From positions 3,541-14,043 of the forward strand of contig JAJXYU010000321.1 of assembly GCA_021780395.1 (NCBI GenBank): a stretch of DNA of 10,503 nucleotides, read 5' to 3'. Below, one piece after another: positions 2,484 to 8,136 of the stretch. Positions within the stretch are counted from its first letter, which is position 1; each line of letters begins with the position of its first letter. Origin of the DNA: Pseudomonadota bacterium. GTDB taxonomy: Bacteria; Pseudomonadota; Gammaproteobacteria; Steroidobacterales; Steroidobacteraceae. Both the position numbers and the translations under genes were made by a program. Under the pieces are notes generated by a model, which worked only from the letters and a program-made list of their open reading frames with translations, had not been told where the DNA came from and made no database searches.

Positions 2484-3734
2484 ATGAATCCGCCGAATCT
2501 CACCCCGTCACCGATGATCCGCGCGCTCGCGGTCCTGATCGCGAGCGCGAGTCTGGGAGCGTGCTCCTTGTTCCGGCCGCCGGCCCCACCCGATCAGCGC
2601 GCCGACGTCGCGCCGGCTGCGCCGGCGCCCGCGCCCGCGCCGGCGTTGCCGACCCCGGTCGCTCAGGATCGGTTCGTGCTCAAGGGTCCTTACGACGACG
2701 TCGTCGGCACCGTGCAGCGGACCACGATCGGTCCGCACGACACGCTGTCGGACGTCGCGCGCCGCTTCGACATCGGTTACGACGAGGTCACGCTCGCCAA
2801 TCCCGGCGTCGATCCCTGGTTGCCCGGGGTCGGTCGGGTGGTCGTCGTGCCGACGCAGTTCATCCTGCCGGAGGCGCCGCATCGCGGGGTCGTGATCAAC
2901 CTCGCGGCGATGCGGATCTTCTATTTTCCGCCGCGCCGCCGCGGTCAGCCGCAGATCGTCTACACGCATCCGATCGGGATCGGGCGGGTGGCCTGGAAGA
3001 CGCCCGAAGGGACGACGCGGATCATCGGCCGGCAGAAGGACCCCGTGTGGATCGTGCCGAAGTCGATCCGCGCCGAGCATGCGAAGGAAGGCGACCCGTT
3101 GCCCGCGGTCGTGCCCGCCGGCGACAACAATCCGCTCGGCCTGTACATGTTCCAGCTCGGCTGGCCGGGCTACCTGATCCACGGGACGGACAAGCCCTAT
3201 GGCGTCGGGATGCGCGTGAGCCACGGGTGCATGCACCTGTACCCGGAGGACATCAAGCAGTTCTTCCACATGATCCCGGTCGGCACGAAGGTCACCGTCG
3301 TCAACCAGCCGTACCTGTTCGGCTGGCGTGACGGCCGCCTGTACATGGAGGCGTTCGCGCCGTTGAAGGGCTACCGCCGCCTGAACTGGACGGCCGAGCG
3401 GCGCCAGATGCTGCAGCGTGCGCTGCATACGCCGGCCGGTCGCGCGGCGATCCGGCGCGGCTTGCGGATCGACTGGGGACGCGTCGTCGCGCTCGTGCAT
3501 GCGCCGCGGGGCGTGCCGGTCGCGATCGCGCAGCATTCGCCGGGAGTCGACGCGGTCGTCGCGCAGGCGCCGCTCGTCGCCGACACGGTGCCGAAGGGCT
3601 CGAACTGGAACGGCGTCAATCAGCTGTCGATCAGCACGCAGACGTACGATGAACTGACCGGCATCGGTCCTTCTCACAAGAAGGCGCCTCCCGCGGCGAC
3701 TCCCCCATCGGCGAGTCCCCCATCCGGACATTGA
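2484..3734 (+). CDS. LysM/YkuD L,D-transpeptidase lipoprotein (ErfK/YbiS/YcfS/YnhG type)
   Basis: This enzyme class forms 3-3 cross-links in peptidoglycan or attaches proteins to it, using an active-site cysteine in the periplasm. The 416-residue product has a hydrophobic signal ending in the lipobox L24-G-A-C27. A Pro/Ala linker (41-60) follows, then a LysM domain (about 82-124: GPHDTLSDVARRFDIGYDEV through VVVPTQF) and the YkuD catalytic domain (about 134-273). H233 and H247 and the nucleophile C249 are present in YLIHGT and SHGCMHLYPEDI; M-H replaces the commoner I-R after the cysteine. Beyond it is an unassigned extension of about 140 residues ending in a Pro/Ser/Ala tail. The ATG at 2484 lacks a strong Shine-Dalgarno; an ATG ten codons on (2514) is a possible alternative that keeps the signal. 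The stop overlaps the next start by TTGA. Confidence 0.93.
   Translation: MNPPNLTPSPMIRALAVLIASASLGACSLFRPPAPPDQRADVAPAAPAPAPAPALPTPVAQDRFVLKGPYDDVVGTVQRTTIGPHDTLSDVARRFDIGYDEVTLANPGVDPWLPGVGRVVVVPTQFILPEAPHRGVVINLAAMRIFYFPPRRRGQPQIVYTHPIGIGRVAWKTPEGTTRIIGRQKDPVWIVPKSIRAEHAKEGDPLPAVVPAGDNNPLGLYMFQLGWPGYLIHGTDKPYGVGMRVSHGCMHLYPEDIKQFFHMIPVGTKVTVVNQPYLFGWRDGRLYMEAFAPLKGYRRLNWTAERRQMLQRALHTPAGRAAIRRGLRIDWGRVVALVHAPRGVPVAIAQHSPGVDAVVAQAPLVADTVPKGSNWNGVNQLSISTQTYDELTGIGPSHKKAPPAATPPSASPPSGH
3696..3725 (+). repeat. 15-base imperfect tandem repeat at the end of the L,D-transpeptidase gene
   Basis: GCGACTCCCCCATCG (3696-3710) is followed directly by GCGAGTCCCCCATCC (3711-3725), with two mismatches. 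It encodes the Pro/Ser-rich end of the lipoprotein (ATPPS then ASPPS) and stops six bases before the TTG start of the next gene. It probably arose by slippage in a low-complexity tail. Confidence 0.65.
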
Positions 3735-5665
3735 ACCCCCGGCACGCGCTCGCGATCGCCGCGTTCACGCTCGGCATCGTGAGCGCGCCGTTGCCGGCGC
3801 GAGCCGCCGCAACCGCCGAGCGTTCCTACGCGAACCTCGACGCGTTCAGGGTCACGCGGATCGCACTCGATCTCGACGCCGACTTCGCCGCGCATCAGCT
3901 GCGCGGCACCGCGGTGCTGACCGTGCGACGGCTGGATCCGTCGGCCAACCACCTGGTGCTCGACACCGCGGGCCTGAGGATCCTCGAGGTCGCCGAGCTG
4001 ACGCGCGTGACCTATGGGGCGTCGAAGCCGATCGCGCCGTTCTGGGTCAGCCGTCCGTTCCGCCTCGGGGTGCCCGATCCGGTCGACGGCACCTCGTTGA
4101 TCATCGACGTGCCGCGTTCGGACGAGACCCGGGAGTCGTTCCGGATCGAATACGAGACCTCCCCCCACGGGCTCGGCCTCACCTGGACCACGGCGCGCGC
4201 CGGCGGACACGGTGGGCGGTTCTTCTACGCATTGTCGCAGCCGTACGGCGCGCGCAGCTGGATCCCCTTGCAGGACAGTCCGCGCGCCCGCGTCCGGGTG
4301 GCGTTGCGCCTGCGTACGCCGTCGGACATGGTCGCGCTGCTCACCGACGCCGGTGACCCGGCGGCGGCGCCGGCCTTCGCGCCGTCGTCGAAGCGCGCGG
4401 CCGTGCATGCGTTGATCACGCGCCGCGCGCTCGCGCCCTCGCAGCTCGACCTGGTCGTCGCCGACCTGAAATTCGCGCCGATCGACGACCGGGCCGGGGT
4501 CTATGCGGCGGGGTGGAGCGCCCGCGGCCCGGCGCGCGCGCTGCGCGACTACCCGGCGGCAAGAGCCGCCGGCGACCGCCTGCTCGGGGTGGGCGACGGC
4601 GTTCGGCGTGATTTCGTGGTGATGCCCGCCGCATTTGCGTTCCGCGCGCTCGCGGTGCCCGGGCTCAGCCTCCTGTCGCCGACCTTGTTCGATCGTGCCC
4701 GGGATCCGGTGCCGCTCGCCGCGCGGCTGCCGTTCGCGGATGCGTCGGATGCGCTCGCGCCGGCGACTCGCGCCGACGCTTGGATCGGTGAGGCATTCGC
4801 CGCGTACGCGCAGAGCCGCATCGCGGCCGAATTGGCCGGCGCGCCGGCCGCCGCCGCGCTCGACACGCTCGCCTATCTCGAGGAGCGCGCAACGCTCGCC
4901 GGCTCGCCGGCGCTCGAGCGCCTGTGCGGCGGGGTCGCCATCCGGCGATACGGTTACGTCGAGGACCGCCGGCTCGCGCGGGAGAAAGGGCGGTTGTTCC
5001 TCGCGACGCTCGCCGCGGGCCTCGGCCGGTCACGGTTCGATGCGCTCGCGCGTCGCTGGTTCGCGCAGGCGGCGGGTCATGCGACCGGCGCCGCGCGGTT
5101 CGACGGGTTCCTCGAGCATCACCTGCTCGAGCCGGGCGGATCCGCGATCCGTCGCGCGGACCTCGCGCAGTGGCTGCACGACCCGGGCGTGCCGGACGCG
5201 GTCGCGCTGCCCGACGCGGCGTCGCTGCGCGCGGTCGACGCGGTGCGCTCCGCGTGGCTCGCGGGCCGCGTACGCACCGGCGCCCTCGGCGCGCGTCATT
5301 GGTCCGAACCCGAGTGGCGGTATTTCCTCGAGGGCCTGCCGGCGAACGTCGGGGCCGCACGGCTCGCGCGGCTCGACGCCGCGTATCGGCCGATGCACGT
5401 GCTGCCCCCGCATGCGCAGAGCGTGTGGTTGCGGGTCGCGATCGCGAATCGCTATCCGCGCGGCACCGAGGCCGCCCGCGGATACCTCGCGGCCGGGGGG
5501 CGGCTCGATCTGCTCGCGCCGGTCTATGCGGCGCTCGCGGCATCGCCGGACGGCCTCGCGCTCGCGCGTCGGGTGTATTCGGCGGCGCGAGCCGGCTATG
5601 ATCCGCTCGCCGCGGCGCGCATCGGCGCGATCGTCGGCCGGGATGCTGCGGAGCGGACGCAATGA
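3731..5665 (+). CDS. Exported M1-aminopeptidase / LTA4-hydrolase-like protein lacking catalytic residues
   Basis: The 644-residue product has a signal peptide (about 1-26, ending PARAAA) and then the layout of bacterial leukotriene-A4-hydrolase-like M1 peptidases. The N-terminal beta domain (about 33-250) includes FYALSQPYGARSWIPLQDSP, matching the family's substrate-site strand. The thermolysin-like domain (about 262-470) and a helical C-terminal domain (about 500-644) follow. The catalytic signatures are gone. The GGMEN position reads RALAV (305-309). HEXXH reads ARLPF (331-335), with only the third ligand E354 kept, at the exact 23-residue spacing. The transition-state Tyr before E-K-G is R417. 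The GRxK carboxylate site reads GRLD (590-593). The frame is intact, so this looks like a maintained pseudoenzyme, perhaps binding peptides. It starts at a TTG overlapping the preceding stop and ends in an ATGA overlap. Confidence 0.85.
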   Translation: MNPRHALAIAAFTLGIVSAPLPARAAATAERSYANLDAFRVTRIALDLDADFAAHQLRGTAVLTVRRLDPSANHLVLDTAGLRILEVAELTRVTYGASKPIAPFWVSRPFRLGVPDPVDGTSLIIDVPRSDETRESFRIEYETSPHGLGLTWTTARAGGHGGRFFYALSQPYGARSWIPLQDSPRARVRVALRLRTPSDMVALLTDAGDPAAAPAFAPSSKRAAVHALITRRALAPSQLDLVVADLKFAPIDDRAGVYAAGWSARGPARALRDYPAARAAGDRLLGVGDGVRRDFVVMPAAFAFRALAVPGLSLLSPTLFDRARDPVPLAARLPFADASDALAPATRADAWIGEAFAAYAQSRIAAELAGAPAAAALDTLAYLEERATLAGSPALERLCGGVAIRRYGYVEDRRLAREKGRLFLATLAAGLGRSRFDALARRWFAQAAGHATGAARFDGFLEHHLLEPGGSAIRRADLAQWLHDPGVPDAVALPDAASLRAVDAVRSAWLAGRVRTGALGARHWSEPEWRYFLEGLPANVGAARLARLDAAYRPMHVLPPHAQSVWLRVAIANRYPRGTEAARGYLAAGGRLDLLAPVYAALAASPDGLALARRVYSAARAGYDPLAAARIGAIVGRDAAERTQ

Positions 5666-5799
5666 TCAGCGAGTGGATGGGAGTGATGCTCGACGAGATG
5701 TCGCGCAAGAAGGCCGAGGAGGAGCAGGCGCGGCTCGAACGGGATCGGCGGCTCGAGGAACGACCGCAGCGGCGCGACGACCAGCGGCCGAAGGGATGA
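5662..5799 (+). CDS. 45-residue charged helical protein between the M1-like and rhomboid genes
   Basis: The product begins MISEWMGVMLDEMSRKKAEE, followed by EQARLERDRRLEERPQRRDD and QRPKG. It has a short amphipathic, Met-rich start and then a Lys/Glu/Arg/Asp-rich stretch that should be a single charged helix or coiled coil (about residues 9-38). It has no export signal, so it is probably cytoplasmic, possibly lying on the membrane through its start. It overlaps both neighbours by ATGA (5662-5665 and 5796-5799), so it closes the gap between two real genes exactly. That is the best evidence that it is translated. I do not recognise the family. Confidence 0.72.
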   Translation: MISEWMGVMLDEMSRKKAEEEQARLERDRRLEERPQRRDDQRPKG

Positions 5800-6476
5800 T
5801 CCCGCTCCAGGACGACAGCCGGTCGTCCTCAAGACCCTACGCGACGGCCGGCTTGATCGCGCTGTGTTTCGCGGTCTTCCTGTGGCAGTCCTCGCTCGAT
5901 GGACCGGCGGCGCGCCGCGCGGTCGATGCGCTCGGCGCGATTCCCGCGGTCGTGTTCGGCGTCGCGAGGCTGCCGCCCGATCTCGTCTGGGTGCCGCGTT
6001 ACGTGCCGGTCCTCACCTCGATGTTCCTGCACGCGAGCTGGATGCACCTGCTCGGCAACGTGCTCTTCCTGTGGATCTTCGGCGCCTCCGTCGAGGACTA
6101 CATGGGGCCGGTGCGGTTCCTCGCGTTCTATCTGTGCAGCGGCATCGCGGCGTTCCTCGCGCAGGGCCTCGCGACGCCGGATTCCGCCTATCCGATCATC
6201 GGCGCGAGCGGCGCGATCTCGGGGGTTCTCGGCGCGTACTTCGTCACGTTCCCGCGCGCGCGCGTGCTGACGCTCGTGGTGTTGCCGTTCTTCTTCACGA
6301 CGATGCGGGTGCCGGCGATGCTGCTGCTGCTGCTGTGGTTCCTCGTGCAGCTCGTGAGCCATTTCGCGGGTCACGACGGCGGCGTCGCGTTCCTCGCGCA
6401 CATCGGCGGCTTCGTCACCGGGATCGTGCTCGCGCCGTGGTTCAAGCGCCGCGATGGCGGCGTCGCGGCGTTGTGA
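5796..6476 (+). CDS. Rhomboid family intramembrane serine protease
   Basis: Rhomboids cleave transmembrane segments inside the lipid bilayer with a Ser-His dyad. The 226-residue product shows a first membrane helix (about 14-32), a loop L1 region containing P-D-L-V-W-V-P-R-Y and the HASWMHLLGNVLFLWIFG element (H79, H84, N88), the catalytic G136-A-S138-G motif, and H202 in FLAHIGGFVTG. About six membrane helices can be counted, ending in a short basic tail (KRR). Both dyad residues and the conserved His/Asn are present, so it should be active. The ATG at 5796 overlaps the stop of the 45-residue gene; the long open frame upstream is a shadow of the M1-like gene. Possible substrates include membrane proteins encoded nearby, but nothing in the sequence shows which. 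Confidence 0.94.
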   Translation: MIPLQDDSRSSSRPYATAGLIALCFAVFLWQSSLDGPAARRAVDALGAIPAVVFGVARLPPDLVWVPRYVPVLTSMFLHASWMHLLGNVLFLWIFGASVEDYMGPVRFLAFYLCSGIAAFLAQGLATPDSAYPIIGASGAISGVLGAYFVTFPRARVLTLVVLPFFFTTMRVPAMLLLLLWFLVQLVSHFAGHDGGVAFLAHIGGFVTGIVLAPWFKRRDGGVAAL

Positions 6477-6482
6477 TAGAGT
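6474..6482 (+). promoter_or_regulatory. Candidate extended -10 before the sheath-like gene
   Basis: TGATAGAGT (TGn plus TAGAGT, 4 of 6 to consensus) overlaps the rhomboid stop and lies 35 bases before the sheath-like start. It has the same form as TGCTAGACT upstream of the first TPM gene. No clear -35 is visible. The 40-base gap here breaks an otherwise overlapping run of genes, so a separate promoter is plausible but unproven. Confidence 0.22.
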
Positions 6483-6516
6483 TCCCCGAGCGCCCACGAG
6501 CGTCGAGGGACCAGCG

Positions 6517-8136
6517 ATGTCGAGTGATCCGAGTCCACGGCTCGGGGAGGAGCGCAGCCCGCAACCGTCGATCACGCGTCTGCCGACCGGCCGGGTCGCG
6601 TTCGTCGGCCGCAGCCTGCGCGGACCGGTCGACCAGCCCACCCGGGTCTCGAGCTTCGCGCAGTTCCAGAGCGTGTTCGGCGGACTCTGGCAGCCGAGTC
6701 CGCTCGGCTATTGCGTCGAGCAGTTCTTCGACAACGGCGGGCGCGACGCGATCGTCGTCCGGATCGCGAACGGCGCGCGCGGCGCGACCGTGACGCTGCC
6801 GACCGGCGGCGGCCGCCCGCTCGAGTTGCGCGCGGTCCGACCGGGCAGTCGCGAGTTCCTGCGGGTCTGCATCGACTATGACAATCTGGCGGCCGGCGAC
6901 GCCGGCTCGTTCAACCTGACGATCCAGCGCGTGCGCGCACGCGGCTCGCTGCACGTCGAGGATCAGGAGAGCCACCGCCGGCTGTCGATTCGCGAATCCG
7001 ACGGACCTCGGTTCGTGACCGCGGCGCTCGCGCATTCCGCGCTCGTCCGCGTGGTCGGCGCGCCGCCAGACGCGAGACCGGCGCGCACGGTCGACGCCGA
7101 CAGCGGTCTCGCGACGGGTTGGATCGGCTCGAACGCGGACGGCGACGACGGCGCGCCCTTGACCGACTACGACCTGATCGGCAGCGAAACCGAACGCACC
7201 GGGATGTTCGCGCTCGAGGATGCCGGACCGTTCGACCTGCTGTACGTGCCGCCGCTCGCGCGCGAGCGGGACGTCGGCCTCGCGACCTGGCTGGTCGCCG
7301 AGCGGTTCTGCCGCCGGCGCCGCGCGCTGCTGATCGTCGATCCCCCGCAGGCCTGGCAGACCGCGGACGATGCGATCGAGGGCTTCGAAACCTGGGGGTT
7401 CCAGAGCGAGAACGCGACGATGTTCTTTCCCCGCGTGCTCGCCTACGACAAGCTGCGCGGGCGCTTCGAGACGTTCGCGCCGGGCGGCGCGGTCGCCGGC
7501 ATGCTCGCCCGCCGCGACGCGCGGATGCCGCCGTGGGATGAGTCGGACGAGAGCGTCGAGCCGGTGCTCAGGTCGGGCTACAAGCCGGCCTGCCAGGTCA
7601 CCGAGGCGCAACGCGTCCGGCTGCGCACCTTCGGCGTGAACACGCTGCCGTCGCTGCGACCCGCGTCGCGGCGGGCGGAACGGCCGCGCACGCTCGCCGC
7701 GGCGAGCGCCGCGGACTTCCGTTATCTCGCATCGCGCCGCACCCATTCGTACCTCTTGAGCTGCATCCTGCACGGCACGCGCTGGGCCGCGACCGCCGCA
7801 CCCGGCCCGGACGCGTTCGCGACCATCGAGGCGCAGGTGCGCGAATTCCTCGGTGACCTGTACCGCAGCGGCGCCTTCCCGGGCCGCGGGCCGGACGACG
7901 CGTATTTCGTCGTCTGCGACGAGCGCCTGAATCCCTTGGGCGCCCCAAGGCGCGGCCTGCAGTTCCTGGTGGGCTTCGCCGCCGCGCGCGCCGGCGAGTT
8001 CCATGCCTACCGGGTCGTGCCGGCGACCGACGGCGGCGATGCGCAACCGGTGACCGTGAACCGCTGGCGCGACGCGCGCCTCAGTCCCGAGCAGATCGAA
8101 TGGATCGATCGTCTCGCGAATCGCCTCGAGGCTTGA
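6517..8136 (+). CDS. Contractile phage-tail-sheath-like protein
   Basis: The 539-residue product follows the layout of contractile tail sheath proteins, which form the outer cylinder of myophage tails, pyocins and extracellular injection systems. The N-terminal part has RVAFVGRSLRGPVDQPTRV, then SSFAQFQSVFGGLW and FFDNGGRDAIVVRI (26-83). The middle domain has LTDYDLIGSE (215-224), RALLIVDPP and a degenerate GAVAGMLARRDARMPPW (324-340) where sheaths usually read A-G-x-x-A-R-x-D-x-x-x-G-V-W. The C-terminal domain has GVNTL, FRYLASRRTHSYLLSCILHG, VREFLGDLYRSGAFPGRGPD and DAYFVVCDE, then VGFAAARAGEF. The ATG has a good Shine-Dalgarno (GAGGGA, six bases upstream). No tube, baseplate, spike, ATPase or lysis gene is present within the window. 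Base composition matches the neighbours. It is coupled to the next gene by a TTGA overlap. Confidence 0.82.
   Translation: MSSDPSPRLGEERSPQPSITRLPTGRVAFVGRSLRGPVDQPTRVSSFAQFQSVFGGLWQPSPLGYCVEQFFDNGGRDAIVVRIANGARGATVTLPTGGGRPLELRAVRPGSREFLRVCIDYDNLAAGDAGSFNLTIQRVRARGSLHVEDQESHRRLSIRESDGPRFVTAALAHSALVRVVGAPPDARPARTVDADSGLATGWIGSNADGDDGAPLTDYDLIGSETERTGMFALEDAGPFDLLYVPPLARERDVGLATWLVAERFCRRRRALLIVDPPQAWQTADDAIEGFETWGFQSENATMFFPRVLAYDKLRGRFETFAPGGAVAGMLARRDARMPPWDESDESVEPVLRSGYKPACQVTEAQRVRLRTFGVNTLPSLRPASRRAERPRTLAAASAADFRYLASRRTHSYLLSCILHGTRWAATAAPGPDAFATIEAQVREFLGDLYRSGAFPGRGPDDAYFVVCDERLNPLGAPRRGLQFLVGFAAARAGEFHAYRVVPATDGGDAQPVTVNRWRDARLSPEQIEWIDRLANRLEA

What the first reader, a model, noticed from the sequence alone, without database searches (positions are those of the whole stretch)
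3731..5665. An M1-aminopeptidase-fold protein with its catalytic signatures all replaced: a likely exported pseudopeptidase
Seen: the sequence aligns with bacterial leukotriene-A4-hydrolase-like M1 peptidases through FYALSQPYGARSWIPLQDSP, MPAAFAF, LSPTLF, WIGEAFAAYAQSRI and REKG. The functional motifs between those anchors are gone. GGMEN reads RALAV (305-309). HEXXH reads ARLPF (331-335). The transition-state Tyr is R417, and the carboxylate-binding Lys of GRxK is D593. E354 survives at the exact third-ligand spacing of 23 residues. Known: M1 peptidases need those residues for zinc binding, amino-terminus recognition and catalysis. Inferred: losing them all in an intact 644-codon frame, with a signal peptide and tight coupling to both neighbours, suggests selection for a non-enzymatic role such as peptide binding or scaffolding in the periplasm.
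Basis: partly seen in the sequence, partly recalled or inferred. Interest (0 to 1): 0.72.

Follow-up and report, generated by a model that had tools for sequence, protein, structure and literature searches.

The report
Conserved dead M1-peptidase-fold exported protein
An uncultured bacterium keeps, in a fixed gene neighbourhood, an exported protein shaped like a zinc peptidase but with its whole active site gone; relatives appear to have lost that site several separate times while still guarding the protein, which suggests that its real job is not cutting peptides.

Summary

It is not recent decay. All 12 distinct rows that I found at 44% identity or more are dead. dN/dS is 0.146 (2dlnL 454 against omega = 1). 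The locus is shared with active orthologues.

New findings:
- Loss looks recurrent: 11 of the 22 homologue-bearing genomes of the genus are dead, with differing replacements. Housekeeping markers reject one clade (AU p 0.018); the M1 alignment alone does not (p 0.415).
- Constraint left the catalytic domain (63% versus 82% identity at matched divergence), not the N or C domain.
- Dead species have smaller genomes (2.8-3.9 versus 4.1-5.9 Mb, n = 11 each).

Corrections: E354 is not conserved in the clade. Intermediates show His to Arg and deletion of the catalytic Glu. Best reading: a non-catalytic periplasmic binding or scaffold protein in a cell-envelope operon; partner unknown.

The parts
3731..5665 (+). 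Catalytically dead LTA4H-type M1 homologue, 644 aa
3731..3808 (+). Signal-peptide-like N terminus (about residues 1-26, judged by eye)
   Evidence: sequence; pLDDT under 50 for residues 1-28
3818..4345 (+). N-terminal M1 domain (residues 30-205)
   Evidence: PF17900 at residues 46-203; dN/dS 0.069 in four dead taxa against 0.087 in active ones
4346..5125 (+). Former catalytic domain (residues 206-465)
   Evidence: No PF01433 hit; 28 of 109 ancestrally invariant residues kept; 63% against 82% identity at matched divergence
4643..4657 (+). Site of GxMEN, reads RALAV (residues 305-309)
4721..4735 (+). Site of HEXXH, reads ARLPF (331-335); His to Arg at 332 and Pro at 334 in 12 of 12 rows of the clade, catalytic Glu deleted in 10 of 12
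4790..4792 (+). E354, position of the third zinc ligand; Glu in the window and G017 only, of 12 rows
4979..4981 (+). R417, position of the transition-state Tyr
5168..5650 (+). C-terminal helical domain (residues 480-640)
   Evidence: PF09127 at residues 524-632; 24 of 32 ancestrally invariant residues kept
5507..5509 (+). D593, position of the GRxK Lys; Asp in 9 of 10 covered rows of the clade
2484..3734 (+). L,D-transpeptidase (YkuD, weak LysM), its end overlapping the start of the M1 gene
   Evidence: PF03734 7.7e-21; next to M1 in all 22 genus genomes that have M1
5662..5799 (+). Small 45-aa ORF, ATGA overlaps at both ends
   Evidence: found by tblastn in 8 of the 22 genomes
5796..6476 (+). 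Rhomboid-like membrane protein, 226 aa
   Evidence: TIGR03902 3.2e-9, below its curated cut-off
6454..8136 (+). Phage-tail-sheath-like protein, 560 aa
   Evidence: phrog_23 1.1e-26; 8bky_A 8.6e-37

Best explanation
The gene encodes an exported pseudoenzyme: an LTA4H-type M1 aminopeptidase fold that can no longer hold zinc or activate water and has been kept for a non-catalytic job. Shown by computation: homology, fold, loss of every catalytic motif, purifying selection on the protein, the same locus as active orthologues, and a move of constraint away from the catalytic domain while the N and C domains keep theirs. Probable: independent repetition of the loss in the genus. Inferred: the job is protein or peptide binding or scaffolding in the periplasm, through surfaces of the N-terminal sheet domain and the C-terminal helical domain, in an operon led by a YkuD L,D-transpeptidase. 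Because catalysis seems to have been lost in several lineages while the protein stayed, the non-catalytic job probably existed already in the active ancestor (moonlighting), and the peptidase activity became dispensable as genomes shrank. My odds: dead as a peptidase 0.95; selected non-catalytic role 0.85; role tied to the YkuD envelope module 0.35.
For: Motif loss. dN/dS 0.146 and 0.145, omega = 1 rejected with 2dlnL 454 and 792. Fold kept even from a dead-only alignment. YkuD next to M1 in all 22 genomes with the gene, dead or active. Identity at matched neighbour divergence, dead against active: N 68 against 72, catalytic 63 against 82, C 67 against 65% (unmatched means). Ancestrally invariant residues kept: N 25 of 40, catalytic 28 of 109, C 24 of 32. 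Clade-specific fixed residues: R332 12 of 12, P334 12 of 12, R293 11 of 11, D240 12 of 12, D593 9 of 10, D624 10 of 10. Dead forms with unlike replacements in other lineages: AAD, SAD, YAY, DAH, QAQ and more in metagenomic proteins. One clade of all dead species rejected by four markers.
Against: No biochemistry, expression data or partner. The M1 alignment alone does not reject a single origin of all dead forms (AU p 0.415). dN/dS of the dead clade is 1.7 times that of active relatives (0.146 against 0.084), so part of the protein is relaxed, and by dN/dS the C domain too is somewhat looser (0.144 and 0.188 against 0.099). The link to YkuD rests on neighbourhood alone. The rhomboid was not found in 7 of 20 genomes whose contig goes on. 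The genus genomes I could match to record titles are MAGs and the rest are unnamed; dS may be near saturation in the deeper sets.
Confidence: 0.75

Rival explanations
1. Vestigial gene: the enzyme became useless in small genomes and is drifting; the frame is open only because GC-rich DNA has few stops.
For: Other frames stay open for up to 433 codons and GC3 is 0.885; catalytic-domain constraint is relaxed; dead species have smaller genomes.
Against: dN/dS 0.145-0.146 with omega = 1 strongly rejected; new residues fixed across the clade; C-domain identity equal to that of active relatives at matched divergence; fold kept.
Confidence: 0.06
2. The frame is kept only for translational coupling of the small ORF and rhomboid; the protein itself does nothing.
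For: Overlaps at 3731, 5662 and 5796.
Against: Coupling needs an open frame, not amino-acid constraint, and dN/dS shows constraint. The rhomboid is not found downstream in 7 of 20 genomes, six active and one dead.
Confidence: 0.04
3. A new activity: the remodelled pocket carries out another, metal-free reaction using clade-fixed residues such as R332, R293, D240, D593 and D624.
For: These residues are fixed or nearly fixed in the clade and differ from the active consensus.
Against: The catalytic domain is on average now the least conserved of the three; other dead lineages carry other residues at the old motif sites.
Confidence: 0.08
4. Peptide sensor or sequestering protein: catalysis lost but the substrate groove kept, so that it binds N-terminal or cell-wall peptides without cutting them.
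For: R591 of GRxK kept in every dead row that covers it; RSWIPLQD loop largely kept. Tma108 is a precedent according to passages of PMC11266112.
Against: GxMEN, which binds the substrate N terminus, is gone, and the motif segments around the groove are among the residues most lost.
Confidence: 0.25

Closest known systems
Cold-active aminopeptidase ColAP of Colwellia psychrerythraea (3cia), LTA4H-type M1
   Different: The entry is named a cold-active aminopeptidase; in the alignment it has an intact HEXXH-type block (HELAH) where the window protein reads RLPF.
Human leukotriene A4 hydrolase
   Different: The TIGR02411 cut-off is not reached (92 against 762 bits); zinc site, GxMEN, Tyr and Lys absent; human LTA4H is not an exported operon protein (recalled).
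Tma108 (yeast M1 pseudopeptidase)
   Same: M1 homologue thought to act without catalysis, by binding (passages of PMC11266112).
   Different: [quoted passage not shown] it is eukaryotic and ribosome-associated.
TAF2 of TFIID
   Same: Subunit of a large complex with an aminopeptidase-homology domain (passages of PMC6220335); that its active site is lost is recalled.
   Different: Nuclear transcription factor subunit with a four-subdomain aminopeptidase region; not exported.

Membership tests
Active M1 peptidase, LTA4H subfamily | M1 N-terminal domain (PF17900) and Leuk-A4-hydro_C (PF09127) | tested here: met
   27.4 bits (cut-off 25.8) and 37.9 bits (cut-off 27)
Active M1 peptidase, LTA4H subfamily | Catalytic domain profile PF01433 | tested here: not met
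   No hit up to E 1
Active M1 peptidase, LTA4H subfamily | HEXXH plus downstream Glu zinc site | tested here: not met
   R-LPF; Glu present in the window but not conserved in its clade
Active M1 peptidase, LTA4H subfamily | GxMEN exopeptidase motif and catalytic Tyr | tested here: not met
   RALAV and R417
Active M1 peptidase, LTA4H subfamily | NCBIfam equivalog TIGR02411 cut-off | tested here: not met
   92.2 against 761.7 bits
M1 pseudopeptidase (non-peptidase homologue) | M1 fold kept | tested here: met
   (predicted models)
M1 pseudopeptidase (non-peptidase homologue) | Catalytic residues replaced | tested here: met
M1 pseudopeptidase (non-peptidase homologue) | Protein kept by purifying selection | tested here: met
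   dN/dS 0.146
M1 pseudopeptidase (non-peptidase homologue) | No measurable peptidase activity; a defined non-catalytic role | not testable with these tools
   needs purified protein

The most novel reading that the evidence does not exclude
In one genus (probably of Steroidobacteraceae) an LTA4H-type M1 enzyme has been turned into a pseudoenzyme again and again, at least twice and perhaps seven times, at one fixed locus, with fold and operon kept. The essential function of this protein, in active members too, would then be non-catalytic, and catalysis an optional activity that is shed when genomes shrink.
Probability: 0.45. Interest if true: 0.75.

Novelty: new variant of a known kind. Interest (0 to 1): 0.58.

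Why it matters
Pseudoenzymes are usually studied as paralogues beside an active copy (recalled). Here orthologues in one genus, at one locus where I could check it, run from fully active through partly degraded (G002 Tyr to Cys; the metagenomic P0009 with Glu kept but both His lost) to completely dead, with apparent independent repeats. That makes a natural series for asking when catalysis becomes dispensable and what else an M1 protein does. The M1 pseudopeptidase that I saw named in the 2024 review is a yeast protein (passages). My five searches for M1 or LTA4H-type pseudopeptidases listed no paper on a bacterial one by title, in a library that lacks most subscription journals.

Tried and rejected
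Zinc-site relic (E354 at the right spacing): rejected, since the clade does not keep it and intermediates shift the register.

Recent decay: rejected.

Intact paralogue elsewhere in the genome: in the genus, one match per genome to the window protein apart from G001 (two copies, 99% and 86%) and G015 and G023 (two pieces on two contigs each). PF01433 over its cut-off is absent in 5 of 11 dead genomes: G017, G006, G007 (no hit) and G003, G013 (only their own dead copy, below cut-off). The other six have one or more over-cut-off hits, and in G005, G008 and G018 one of these is the dead copy itself.

Single origin of all dead forms: M1 tree of 41 rows AU p 0.415, not rejected. Markers: p 0.0006 before cleaning, p 0.018 after dropping G004 rpoB as a likely contaminant and exchanging one G013 gyrA contig (quick trees). 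Markers plus neighbour genes: p 0.04, but that tree splits the main dead clade; I take this for misrooting, because the outgroups carry no neighbour genes there and only two of the four markers. The neighbour-gene tree that includes outgroup neighbours keeps the main dead clade together at 100/100. In the 159-row M1 tree 28 dead rows (score 4 of 6 or less) fall in 7 maximal dead clades (quick tree, SH-aLRT only). Four of the seven consist wholly or partly of partly degraded metagenomic proteins (score 4, one or two member sequences each), which could include sequencing errors. In one search the stricter cut (score 2 or less) counts P0009 as intact and so splits the main clade artificially.

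G010 has no M1 hit (81% complete). The sheath gene is missing there too and its YkuD hit is only 45% identical, so the region may simply be unassembled; uninformative.

Synteny outside the genus, sought with the window's own proteins in 74 named loci (L083-L156; 7 of them genus members): YkuD found near M1 in 4 of the 67 others (L094, L131, L146 at 45-49%, L129 at 28%), and in G042 and G032. Distant versions could be missed, and some loci are cut close to M1.

The structure output gave no coordinates that I could read, so I measured no distances.

Protein searches scored only the 7996-7999 candidates sharing most words; one search listed 120 of 1201 hits, chosen by likeness to a dead protein (G013), so the proportion dead among them is not a rate.

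Full report

The active site (LTA4H numbering recalled). Window: GxMEN is RALAV, HEXXH is R-LPF, Tyr383 is R417, Lys565 is D593, while Arg563 (R591) is kept. The main dead clade has 12 distinct rows (window, G017, G021, G007, G014, G003, G006, P0003, P0006, P0008, P0009, P0011): Arg replaces the first His in 12 of 12 and Pro the fourth HEXXH position in 12 of 12. The Glu position is deleted in 10, Glu in P0009 and Ala in P0011. The Glu of the third ligand remains in the window and G017 only.

Relatives. Of 98 genomes around the nearest held one, 48 have a homologue. Of 23 genomes of the genus, 22 do. By the test HExxH + Glu + Tyr, 10 of these 22 are intact (G015 and G023 from split copies), G002 differs only by Tyr to Cys, and 11 are dead: G001, G017, G021, G007, G014, G003 and G006 (main clade), G013 (AAD), G005 (SAD), G018 (YAY), G008 (DAH). 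A protein search started from G013 gave 120 listed hits of 1201. With P0012-P0015 that makes 124 rows: 111 have all six diagnostic residues, 4 have four, 9 have two or fewer, with further replacements such as GALTA, RVLAE, RSLAQ, HALAE and HQLSA. The record titles of the main dead clade are MAGs, one of them named Steroidobacteraceae; a partial protein of the clade is also labelled so (P0008).

Same locus. tblastn of the window's genes shows YkuD beside M1 in all 22 genomes, dead or active. The tail-sheath-like gene is downstream in the 20 whose contig continues. The rhomboid is found in 13 of these 20, not in G002, G019, G016, G004, G022, G011 and G008. So the dead proteins are orthologues in place, not diverged paralogues.

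Selection. IQ-TREE GY+F3X4: M1 omega 0.146 (window, G017, G021, G007) and 0.145 (plus G014, G003), against 0.084 in eight active relatives (one of them G002); omega = 1 rejected with 2dlnL 454 and 792. Neighbours (four dead / active): YkuD 0.073/0.068, sheath 0.097/0.090, DUF2059 0.120/0.081, rhomboid 0.048/0.049 (rhomboid active set: 3 taxa). M1 is thus relaxed by about 1.7 times but far from neutral. By domain (four dead / active): N 0.069/0.087, catalytic 0.192/0.059, C 0.144/0.099; in six dead taxa N 0.099, catalytic 0.145, C 0.188. Identity at a matched neighbour identity of 74% (line through 15 dead pairs without the partial G006, against the mean of 28 active pairs): N 68/72, catalytic 63/82, C 67/65 (plain means with G006 are 63/72, 58/82, 62/65). 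Residues invariant in active genus members and other genera are kept in the dead clade at 25 of 40 (N), 28 of 109 (catalytic) and 24 of 32 (C). The catalytic domain has lost its privileged constraint and the other domains have largely not. For the other dead lineages together (G013, G005, G008, G018) omega is 0.074 against 0.052 for YkuD and 0.032 for sheath; dS may be saturated there and the branches include active ancestors.

How many losses. On M1 itself (motif columns removed, 41 rows) the genus and the main dead clade each have 100/100 support, but one clade of all dead rows is not rejected (p 0.415). Neighbour genes put the dead rows in three or more places with weak deep forks. Four housekeeping markers reject one clade (p 0.018), and G008 falls in a fork of SH-aLRT 95 with the active species. 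So at least two losses are supported, if regaining the site is taken as implausible. Four are likely in the genomes, and up to seven maximal dead clades appear if partly degraded metagenomic proteins are counted.

Genome size. Size divided by completeness is 2.77-3.94 Mb in the 11 dead and 4.12-5.86 Mb in the 11 others (G002 counted as active), without overlap; Mann-Whitney p 8e-5, not corrected for kinship, and sizes were rounded in the output.

Mechanism. A site with no His, no Glu general base and no Tyr cannot work as an M1 zinc peptidase (established chemistry of the family). What is kept is the body of the protein, the N and C domains most of all. I therefore favour a binding or scaffold role in the periplasm, in a module with an L,D-transpeptidase. 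Adjacency is the only evidence for that partner. Apparent recurrent loss at one locus suggests that the role pre-dates the loss.

Literature seen. PMC11266112: passages only. PMC6220335: passages only. Everything else: listings and abstract starts.

Noticed in passing
6454-8136: A phage-tail-sheath-like protein (phrog_23 1.1e-26; 8bky_A 8.6e-37) stands beside bacterial envelope genes and is found at this locus in all 20 genus genomes whose contig continues. None of the other window genes that I scanned with Pfam looked like a phage structural gene.
   Followed up: partly
genus genomes: Species with a dead M1 have smaller estimated genomes than those with an active one, without overlap (11 against 11).
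   Followed up: partly
P0003, residues about 500-635: The C-terminal part looks identical to the window protein while the rest is about 80% alike: recombination or a chimeric assembly. Not used for dN/dS.
   Followed up: no
L032 and L051 (G001): The nearest genome holds two copies of the locus, 99% and 86% like the window's M1: probably two strains in one bin.
   Followed up: no
L039 (G002): An otherwise intact orthologue has Cys at the catalytic Tyr position: a possible early step of loss.
   Followed up: no
946-2402: Two TPM-domain genes (1.5e-34 and 7.2e-12) lie upstream of YkuD and recur in that order in most genus genomes.
   Followed up: no
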